A stretch of 64,000 nucleotides of DNA, taken from the NCBI RefSeq assembly GCF_000277815.2, contig NC_018480.1, positions 1 to 64,000 of the forward strand, read 5' to 3'. The position numbers and the translations under genes were made by a program. Of the stretch, positions 45,518 to 47,388 are shown piece after piece. Numbering within the stretch: position 1 is the first letter of the stretch; the number at the start of each line of letters is the position of its first letter. The notes under the pieces were generated by a model, which was not told the origin of the DNA, made no database searches, and was given only the letters and a program-made list of their open reading frames with translations. The stretch is from Encephalitozoon hellem ATCC 50504. Lineage: Eukaryota > Microsporidia > Unikaryonidae.

Positions 45518-46135
45518 ATGGACTTCGATGAAGATACTCTGTTTCTTGGAAATATTCCTTCCAGCTTCACGAATGAACTTCTTACGGAAATGCTAAGCAC
45601 TTTTGGAGAGATTAAAGAGTTTAGGCGTGGTAGGAGTCTGGAGGGCATTAACTCGGGATGGGTATTTGTAAATTACCACGAGTCAGCATCTGCAGAGCGT
45701 CTCTACGACACTCTTTTGGGCAGAGACTTGGGACAAAGCGGAATAATTATTCTTCCTCAAAGAACGAGTCCCAGCTCGTGGGAAGGTAAGAAGAATGCAC
45801 TTAAAAGAATTGAGAGCATATGTGAGAGATACAGGAAGGAGCTTGAGAAAGAGGAACGCCTGGAAAAGTTTGTTTCTAGCTACAATCTGCTGTATGGAGA
45901 TGCAAATGATAGCAAGGTATTTTATGATGCATTGAAAAAATGGATAGAAGAAGAGTCAGAAATACGCAGAAGATGCAGAAGAATTGAAGAGGAATTTAAA
46001 AGAAGCATGGAGAAGAAGAGACAGGAGGAATACCATTATCTGTCTACCTATGACGATGACAGGTCGAATGACTTATTTTATATTGACAGGGCATCTTGGA
46101 TTTCCACCAGAAGGAACAAATATGGCGATAAATAA
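45518..46135 (+). CDS. RRM protein with coiled-coil tail
   Basis: This is a 205-residue protein. The first 80 residues form an RNA-recognition motif (TLFLGNIPSSFTNELL, then SGWVFVNYHESASAERL). Residues 95-185 are strongly charged and helical (RYRKELEKEERLEKF, RRIEEEFKRSMEKKRQEE), likely a coiled coil. The RRM with long helical extension is seen in spliceosome-linked proteins, but I cannot name an orthologue. The start is the ATG at 45518; the longer frame opens with TTG. It is divergent from the ZW10-like gene with only 55 bases between the two start codons. Confidence 0.8.
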   Translation: MDFDEDTLFLGNIPSSFTNELLTEMLSTFGEIKEFRRGRSLEGINSGWVFVNYHESASAERLYDTLLGRDLGQSGIIILPQRTSPSSWEGKKNALKRIESICERYRKELEKEERLEKFVSSYNLLYGDANDSKVFYDALKKWIEEESEIRRRCRRIEEEFKRSMEKKRQEEYHYLSTYDDDRSNDLFYIDRASWISTRRNKYGDK

Positions 46136-46189: not shown

Positions 46190-46495
46190 ATGAAGGGTGG
46201 CCTGGAGTCAAGAATGTTCGATGCCCTGAAGAAGGAATTCTGTCCAGCAAGTATGGAGGTTAGAAACACTTCCTACGACCATATAGGACATAGAGAAGTG
46301 GGCATGGGGGGCTTAGAGACACACTTTCGTGTAAAAATAAAGTCCGCCATGTTTAACGGAATGGTAAGTCTTAGCAGTTTATAATTTAAGAAATTTGCAG
46401 ATAGGCACAGACTTGTACACAAGACACTGGAGTTTGCTTTTCAAGAGGGGCTTCATGCTATTGAGATTGATTGCGATTCAGATAGCCAGGAGTGA
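46190..46495 (+). CDS. BolA-like protein, two exons
   Basis: This is a 92-residue BolA-family protein, joined from exons 46190-46363 and 46391-46495. BolA proteins work with monothiol glutaredoxins in iron-sulphur cluster delivery and iron sensing. Exon 1 has the family core: SRMFDALKKEF, SMEVRNTSYDHIGH and LETHFRVKI. Exon 2 supplies the other half (RHRLVHKTLEFAFQEGLHAIEI). Without removing a 27-base GTAAGT...TTTAAG intron the frame ends after eight further codons and the RHRLV half is lost. With it, phase and family order are restored exactly. The start is the ATG at 46190, preceded by AAAATTTTG. A mitosomal Hsp70, also of the Fe-S pathway, lies 3.6 kb downstream. Confidence 0.85.
46364..46390 (+). 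other. 27-base spliceosomal intron in BolA gene
   Basis: The segment starts GTAAGT, the strong 5' splice consensus of Encephalitozoon, and ends TTTAAG, with TATAATTTAAG at the 3' end as a possible fused branch/acceptor. Removal keeps phase 0 on both sides. The next AG, at 46399-46400, would shift the frame and break the BolA motif. Confidence 0.8.
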
Positions 46496-46638: not shown

Positions 46639-47388
46639 ATGCTATGGCTACTATACTTTGCATCTTGCTGGTGTGCATACGTTCCTGATGTGTGTACAAG
46701 CTCTGGAACGATAGCATTACACTTTGTGGACGGCCCTGTTAAAGGCGTAACAGATAGGGTTCTTAATGCTTTAGATGAGCTTGGGGTGAAGGCCACTTTC
46801 TCGTTTACAGTAAACCAAAAGGTAGTCGGAAATGTGGGGCAACTGTACAGAAGAGCTCTTAATGAAGGGCATAGTGTGGGGCTGAGGATAGATCCAAGAA
46901 TGGACGATAGCTACGGTGATGTTTCCAGAGATGCTTTAGAAGAGCATATTGATAAGGAAATAGACACAATAGATGGGCTCAGCGGGACCGAAGTAAGGTA
47001 TGCGTTCGCACCTGTAAACAACGGAGAAGTTAATTCGGAGGTCTATAGTGTCCTTACTGAGAGAGGTGTTCTTCCTATAGGGTATACCTTCTGCCCATAT
47101 GATTGGGATGATCCCATGGGAGAGTTTGAAGGTATGATAGAAGGATCTGATCCAAAGCATCATTCATACATCATCTTGATGCATGATGGGCAGGAGGGAG
47201 ACACTTCGCGCCTTGAAAGAATGGTGAAAATAGGAGAGGAAAAAGGCTACACGTTTGTAAATATGGACGAATGCCTCAGAGGCTACAAAGGTGCTTCGGG
47301 AGAGCCCGAAATCACCCTGAGAGGAAAGGGTGTTGAAAGCTTTTCATCGTTTTTACCCTTTTTCATCCTATTATCTCGATTTCTCTAA
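46639..47388 (+). CDS. Polysaccharide-deacetylase-like secreted protein lacking metal ligands
   Basis: This is a 249-residue NodB-fold protein with an N-terminal signal peptide ([12 protein letters not shown]) and a hydrophobic C-terminal run ([12 protein letters not shown]), suggesting GPI or tail anchoring at the spore wall. The fold motifs are present but catalytic residues are lost. TFDDGP is HFVDGP (only D31 kept), and the metal-binding H-x3-H is replaced by arginines (GLRIDPRM, R83 and R87). The RPPYG-like motif is FAPVNNG; ILMHDG is kept. From memory the E. cuniculi orthologue (ECU11_0510) has a solved structure and no detectable chitin deacetylase activity. The start is the ATG at 46639 after TCCTACCC. 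It is better regarded as a wall protein than an enzyme. Confidence 0.9.

What the first reader, a model, noticed from the sequence alone, without database searches (positions are those of the whole stretch)
46190..46495. 27-base intron required for a BolA-like gene
Only removal of GTAAGT...TTTAAG (46364-46390) joins the two halves of the BolA family pattern in one frame. The uninterrupted frame ends after eight codons and loses the conserved RHRLV half. Encephalitozoon has few introns, mostly in ribosomal protein genes, so one in an Fe-S-pathway gene is worth recording.
Basis: partly seen in the sequence, partly recalled or inferred. Interest (0 to 1): 0.75.

Follow-up and report, generated by a model that had tools for sequence, protein, structure and literature searches.

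The report
Tiny intron inside Encephalitozoon BolA gene
A small iron-sulfur helper gene of the microsporidian parasite Encephalitozoon hellem is very probably split by a 27-base intron of the ordinary kind for this genus, and the public protein records for two Encephalitozoon species appear to cut it out at the wrong place.

Summary
The gene at 46190-46495 (+) encodes a whole BolA protein only after a removal around 46364-46390, and those 27 bases fit best: best BolA match of 13 frame-keeping GT-AG removals (73.1 bits; next 69.1 and 67.2) and the usual BolA spacing. They belong to a class of 15 GTAAGT...TAATTTNAG sites in this 2.25-Mb genome (reversed-pattern control: 1). U2 and U6 snRNA genes are present. 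Two truncated database frames, one identical to E. intestinalis over exon 1, end just after FNGM-VS, as a conserved GTAAGT donor followed by a stop would give. The E. romaleae record has the same junction.

Corrections: the unspliced frame runs six codons past the donor, not eight; frame alone does not single out this removal; in this short class 3 of 12 other host genes are ribosomal. E. romaleae is already annotated this way; the E. hellem and E. intestinalis records use motif-poor junctions.

No RNA evidence was available. It is an ordinary U2-type mini-intron, a new member of a known kind. More interesting is a BolA1-type gene in a mitosome-bearing lineage reported to have lost the late Fe-S steps.

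The parts
46190..46363 (+). Exon 1 of the BolA1-like gene, codons 1-58 (MKGG...FNGM)
   Evidence: raw frame containing it scores Pfam BolA 39.4 bits; identical to NCBI E. hellem record P0001 up to the junction
46364..46390 (+). 27-nt phase-0 U2-type spliceosomal intron GTAAGTCTTAGCAGTTTATAATTTAAG
   Evidence: best of 104 GT-AG pairs in the gene, and first in the window among pairs whose donor passed the script's threshold; one of 15 class members in the genome; removal gives 73.1-bit BolA
46364..46369 (+). 5' splice site GTAAGT
   Evidence: M-V-S continuation in P0003 and P0005 fits the same donor
46380..46385 (+). Branch-site-like TATAAT; branch A inferred at 46384, 6 nt before the intron's last base
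   Evidence: TAATTT is in all 15 sites by the search pattern; U2 snRNA with GTAGTA present; the pairing is inference
46382..46384 (+). In-frame TAA that ends the unspliced frame after six intron codons
46389..46390 (+). 3' splice site AG (TTTAAG)
46391..46495 (+). Exon 2, codons 59-92 plus TGA (KFADRHRLV...DSQE)
   Evidence: Pfam BolA 25.3 bits alone, cut-off 25.7; 30 of 34 residues identical in E. romaleae P0002
46377..46400 (+). 24-nt GTTTAT...TTGCAG removal implied by the NCBI E. hellem protein P0001; judged wrong
   Evidence: splice-site score -15.3 against 19.7; one residue too many in the F...RHRLV spacing
46368..46400 (+). 33-nt removal that would give the same junction residues as the NCBI E. 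intestinalis protein P0004; judged wrong
   Evidence: score -16.5; two residues too few in the spacing; E. intestinalis DNA not seen

Best explanation
The gene is a BolA1-type Fe-S helper of E. hellem (or a very near strain) interrupted by a minimal U2-type spliceosomal intron at 46364-46390. The parasite's reduced spliceosome recognises GTAAGT, forms the lariat on the A of TATAAT (46384, inferred) and uses the AG six bases further on, joining ATG (M58) to AAA (K59). Unspliced RNA meets TAA six codons into the intron and would give a 64-aa protein without the RHRLV half, so whole BolA is made only from spliced RNA. The 92-aa product probably works with a monothiol glutaredoxin in handling [2Fe-2S] clusters (inferred from the family). 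Shown: motif, frame, family match and relatives. Inferred: that the RNA is spliced, the branch point, and the partner.
For: Pfam 73.1 bits spliced, against 39.4 and 25.3 for the raw pieces and 58.4 read through; best of 13 frame-keeping removals. Motif class 15 against control 1; the other 14 members lie in 12 genes whose splicing gives frames of 108-479 aa. Spacing F...RHRLV of 13 residues in the 27-nt product, E. romaleae P0002 and 5 of 5 further database BolA proteins P0006-P0010; 14 in P0001 and 11 in P0004. Gap-free across the junction in all 5 printed PDB alignments, two of them near-identical chains. P0005, identical to E. intestinalis P0004 over 59 residues, ends MVS; P0003 ends MVSL. 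Exon 2, behind the in-frame stop, is better conserved with E. romaleae than exon 1: 30/34 against 39/58. U2 and U6 snRNA genes found.
Against: No RNA evidence was available. Two of three NCBI-named records (E. hellem, E. intestinalis) draw the junction elsewhere, and in the window their junctions score only 4-6 bits less with Pfam. The 7th intron base is C; of the 14 other class members 12 have G, 2 T and none C (list). The position weights were trained on sites picked by a motif the candidate shares, so that score is partly circular for the core bases. Orthologue DNA could not be fetched, so conservation of TTTAAG is untested and that of GTAAGT is inferred from protein ends, which a contig end could also produce.
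Confidence: 0.95

Rival explanations
1. The intron is the 24-nt GTTTAT...TTGCAG (46377-46400), as the NCBI E. hellem protein implies; VSLSN is coding.
For: Deposited protein P0001 matches exactly this removal; it also scores as BolA, 69.1 bits.
Against: Donor and acceptor lack the class motifs (score -15.3 against 19.7); one extra residue in a spacing that is constant in the other BolA proteins measured here except P0004; E. romaleae and E. intestinalis records show different junctions.
Confidence: 0.03
2. Pseudogene or sequencing error: the TAA is a true nonsense change and the gene is dead.
For: The uninterrupted frame stops at 64 aa.
Against: Exon 2 is 30/34 identical to E. romaleae; two other Encephalitozoon-like database frames also end just after M-V-S; the ends match the genome's intron class.
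Confidence: 0.01
3. The intron is real but splicing is poor, and the unspliced RNA gives a functional 64-aa short form.
For: In E. [quoted passage not shown]
Against: The short form loses the RHRLV half; its added tail differs between species (VSLSSL, VSL, VS), so it is not conserved.
Confidence: 0.05

Closest known systems
Short U2-type introns of Encephalitozoon cuniculi (Grisdale et al. 2013, PMC3629993; Irimia and Roy 2008, PMC2483917)
   Same: GT-AG ends, strict GTAAGT donor, TAAYTT branch motif close to the AG, 22-76 nt, stop codon inside
   Different: This one lies mid-gene in a BolA gene; splicing not shown by RNA here
BolA-like protein of E. romaleae SJ-2008 (P0002)
   Same: Same junction (FNGM-KFTDRHRLV), 75% identity
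   Different: One residue longer in exon 1; its DNA was not seen
BolA1-type chains in the PDB: 4pug, 4pui, 1v60, 2n8q, 5zb6 (UVI31+), 5lci (BolA-like protein 1)
   Same: Whole-domain match; ETHF and RH-rich motif shared in the five printed alignments (5lci not among them)
   Different: No N-terminal extension in the Encephalitozoon protein; partner untested. Organisms of the chains are recalled, not from the call

Membership tests
Encephalitozoon U2-type mini-intron | GT-AG ends with GTAAGT donor | tested here: met
Encephalitozoon U2-type mini-intron | TAAYTT branch motif (in all 13 E. cuniculi introns after two questionable ones were excluded, PMC2483917 passages) | tested here: met
   TAATTT at 46382-46387
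Encephalitozoon U2-type mini-intron | length 22-76 nt | tested here: met
   27 nt; range from PMC3629993
Encephalitozoon U2-type mini-intron | retention breaks the frame or brings a stop | tested here: met
   TAA after six codons
Encephalitozoon U2-type mini-intron | spliced RNA observed | not testable with these tools
   no RNA data
Encephalitozoon U2-type mini-intron | splice ends conserved in sister species | tested here: inconclusive
   donor supported by M-V-S protein ends; acceptor DNA not available; deposited models disagree
BolA (PF01722) | profile match above the curated cut-off over the whole domain | tested here: met
   73.1 bits, cut-off 25.7, profile 1-73 of 76
BolA (PF01722) | RHRLV motif with its histidine | tested here: met
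   H64 in the spliced product; P0006 has RQRKV instead, so the motif is not invariant in the set
BolA1 subtype | closest solved relatives are BolA1 type, not BolA2 or BolA3 | tested here: met
   70.7-95.2 bits for 4pug, 4pui, 1v60, 2n8q, 5zb6 and 5lci; protein bolA 2dhm 66.3; chains named BolA2 or BolA-like protein 2 26.0-42.4; BolA-like protein 3 23.3 (the profile includes the two doubtful models). No tree was made; subtype of the unlabelled chains is recalled
BolA1 subtype | binds a monothiol glutaredoxin | not testable with these tools
   a protein with a glutaredoxin domain and CGFT is encoded (L043)

The most novel reading that the evidence does not exclude
Encephalitozoon has kept one BolA1-type protein although microsporidia are reported to have lost late mitochondrial Fe-S factors and their monothiol glutaredoxin looks Grx3-like (mainly cytosolic in T. 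hominis). BolA1 may have been re-routed to a cytosolic Grx3-like partner, with production gated by an inefficiently spliced intron that also hid or distorted the gene in catalogues.
Probability: 0.25. Interest if true: 0.55.

Novelty: new member of a known kind. Interest (0 to 1): 0.3.

Why it matters
It proposes one gene model where three named Encephalitozoon records show three different junctions, and shows how a 27-base intron with a whole number of codons can distort or hide a short gene in a compact genome. It also qualifies the reading that microsporidia lost the late Fe-S cluster helpers: the passages seen of PMC5216125 name Bol3 among the lost factors and report no genes for the late part of the pathway in E. 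cuniculi or T. hominis, yet a BolA-like protein, BolA1 type by sequence, is recorded in three named Encephalitozoon species.

Tried and rejected
Relatives' DNA: the one viral-contig scan gave no relative; the bacterial, phage and plasmid collections hold no microsporidia by their descriptions and were not searched; no metagenome scan was allowed; the tool says this genome has no relatives held.

Second-ranked splice-like pair of the window, 11846-11823 (-), score 16.1: rejected as an intron. A triosephosphate-isomerase-like frame runs through it without a stop, and the bases encode part of an HSERRKWFGET stretch (the enzyme name and motif are recalled). It shows that a good donor plus AG is not enough, and that the score alone can mislead.

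The looser pattern GTAAGTN{2,32}TAAYTTN{0,4}AG gave 36 matches (33 distinct donors) against 18 for the reversed control, so it was used for leads only.

NCBIfam gave only a below-cut-off match to bacterial BolA (38.1 bits, cut-off 137). Literature: searches BolA+microsporidia (20 of 111 papers listed) and BolA+Encephalitozoon (20 of 34 listed) showed no title on this gene; the unlisted papers were not seen. Lee et al. 2010 and the E. intestinalis genome paper are not held. Supplements could not be read, so whether this intron is among the 37 E. cuniculi introns is unknown. No structure was predicted; the Pfam and PDB matches were judged enough.

Full report
Observation. The window belongs to a 2,251,784-base, 12-contig genome. 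The sequence is E. hellem or very near it: the NCBI protein 'BolA-like protein [Encephalitozoon hellem]' (P0001) is identical to the window's product except at the splice junction. The gene runs from ATG 46190 to TGA 46495. Unspliced, it stops at TAA 46382-46384, six codons past the donor.

Frame and family. The genome-wide Pfam search finds one BolA place, 46226-46480, with one stop inside and 58.4 bits. Spliced at 46364-46390 it scores 73.1 bits; the raw first frame scores 39.4 and the second half alone 25.3, just under the 25.7 cut-off. I listed every GT-AG pair of 20-80 nt in the gene: 104, of which 13 leave an open frame to 46495. All 13 products were scanned: 73.1 for the 27-nt removal, 69.1 for a 24-nt and 67.2 for a 33-nt one, and 40.0-48.8 for the other ten. 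So frame alone does not single out the 27 bases, and the family score leads by only 4-6 bits; frame, family, spacing and motif together do.

Motif. A plain GTAAGT...TTTAAG pattern is not enriched in the genome (9 matches, reversed control 17). Requiring the branch motif, GTAAGTN{2,32}TAATTTNAG occurs 15 times, and once when the pattern is read backwards. In the window it occurs once, with 0.02 expected. The other 14 sites are 23-33 nt long and lie in 12 genes. By Pfam, with 11 of the 12 genes scanned, three are ribosomal (Ribosomal_L5, S6e, L6e); the others are adenylate kinase, PTH2, a PLD-domain protein, a ThiF protein, a Sec61-plug protein, one with only a below-cut-off DUF match and two with no family; L006 was not scanned. 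In the looser list, 15 further genes gave frames; of the 7 of these scanned, four are ribosomal (S3Ae, L5e, L19e, S8e) and three have no family. A position-weight score trained on the 14 ranks the BolA site first of 104 pairs in the gene and first in the window among pairs whose donor passed a threshold (19.7). Because the 14 were chosen by the shared core, this score is partly circular; the shuffle and reversed-pattern controls are not. The window's second-ranked pair (16.1) lies in an intact triosephosphate-isomerase-like frame and is coding. Published E. cuniculi introns are 22-76 nt with relatively strict donor and branch motifs (PMC3629993, section 8 part 1); all 13 left after two questionable ones were excluded carried TAAYTT (PMC2483917, passages). 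U2 and U6 snRNA genes are in this genome (79.8 and 66.2 bits), U2 with the GTAGTA branch-pairing stretch (its role is recalled). Pairing of GUAGUA with UAUAAU, with the A at 46384 bulged, is inference.

Relatives. Three protein searches gave ten relatives. E. romaleae P0002 has FNGM-KFTDRHRLV, the 27-nt type of junction. E. hellem P0001 has FNGM-VSLSN-RHRLV, exactly what the 24-nt removal 46377-46400 would give. E. intestinalis P0004 has FNGM-VN-RHRLV, the residues that removal of 46368-46400 would give here; its own DNA was not seen. Counting from F to V of F...RHRLV, the spacing is 13 residues in the 27-nt product, P0002 and 5 of 5 further proteins (P0006-P0010), 14 in P0001 and 11 in P0004; P0003 and P0005 end before the motif. 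P0006 shares the DCDSD tail and reads through the place without interruption; it is probably another microsporidian, but its source is unnamed and its DNA was not seen. Two truncated frames are telling: P0005 equals E. intestinalis P0004 over 59 residues and then ends VS; P0003 ends VSL. If P0004 and P0005 come from the same sequence, it must read GTN-AGY and then end, as GTAAGT plus a stop would give; a contig end cannot be ruled out for either P0003 or P0005. Exon 2, beyond the stop, is 30/34 identical to E. romaleae against 39/58 for exon 1, which argues against a dead gene.

Function. A profile of the ten relatives plus the window product matches BolA1-type chains best (4pug 95.2, 4pui 89.3, 1v60 74.6, 5lci 'BolA-like protein 1' 70.7 bits) and BolA2 (26.0-42.4) and BolA3 (23.3) chains weakly (the subtype of chains not so named is recalled). 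The protein begins at the domain, without an obvious targeting extension. The genome has three glutaredoxin-family places; one encodes a 196-aa protein with a CGFT site after an N-terminal stretch (L043), which recalls the Grx3-type microsporidian protein with a divergent Trx domain in PMC5216125 (passages). That paper names late-acting mitochondrial factors, Bol3 among them, as lost in microsporidia (passages). In Giardia a mitosomal BolA1 binds Grx5 and can be deleted without significant change in mitosome biology (PMC10578589, abstract and passages). The likely role here, a [2Fe-2S] handling partner of a monothiol glutaredoxin, is inference from the family.

Verdict. This is very probably a real, ordinary mini-intron in an already recognised BolA-like gene. 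The useful results are a better-supported junction for E. hellem and probably E. intestinalis, and a BolA1-type protein in a lineage reported to have dropped late Fe-S steps. No E. cuniculi protein was named in any of the three searches; P0003 may be from it, but that is a guess.

Noticed in passing
G000:C8:90539-90892 (-) and G000:C8:100630-100969 (+) (L005/L014, L006/L016): Two genes that look alike by eye (hydrophobic stretches), 302 and 305 aa after splicing, each with two mini-introns (23-25 nt) at like positions and phases (codons 150.33/252.67 and 160.33/257.67); no Pfam family for the first, second not scanned.
   Followed up: partly
G000:C12:84782-84806 and 85220-85242 (L010/L020): A PLD-domain gene with two mini-introns, one ending TAATTTTAAG with an extra base.
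   Followed up: partly
G000:C11:208096-208264 (L039): Two genes head to head, each with a candidate intron directly after the start codon, the introns less than 100 bases apart; they look like ribosomal proteins by eye, not scanned.
   Followed up: no
L043:1186-1776 (G000:C5, about 184 kb): Protein with a glutaredoxin domain bearing CGFT instead of the usual CGFS (usual motif recalled) after an N-terminal stretch; a possible BolA partner.
   Followed up: partly
window 45518-46135 (+): Neighbouring gene with an RRM domain (37.3 bits) and a long charged tail; its 30 PDB matches are spread over poly(A)-binding, ELAV, CUG-binding, U2AF65 and other RRM proteins, so its role is open.
   Followed up: partly
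window 46639-47388 (+): Polysaccharide-deacetylase-like gene (39.3 bits) with hydrophobic ends by eye, downstream of BolA.
   Followed up: no
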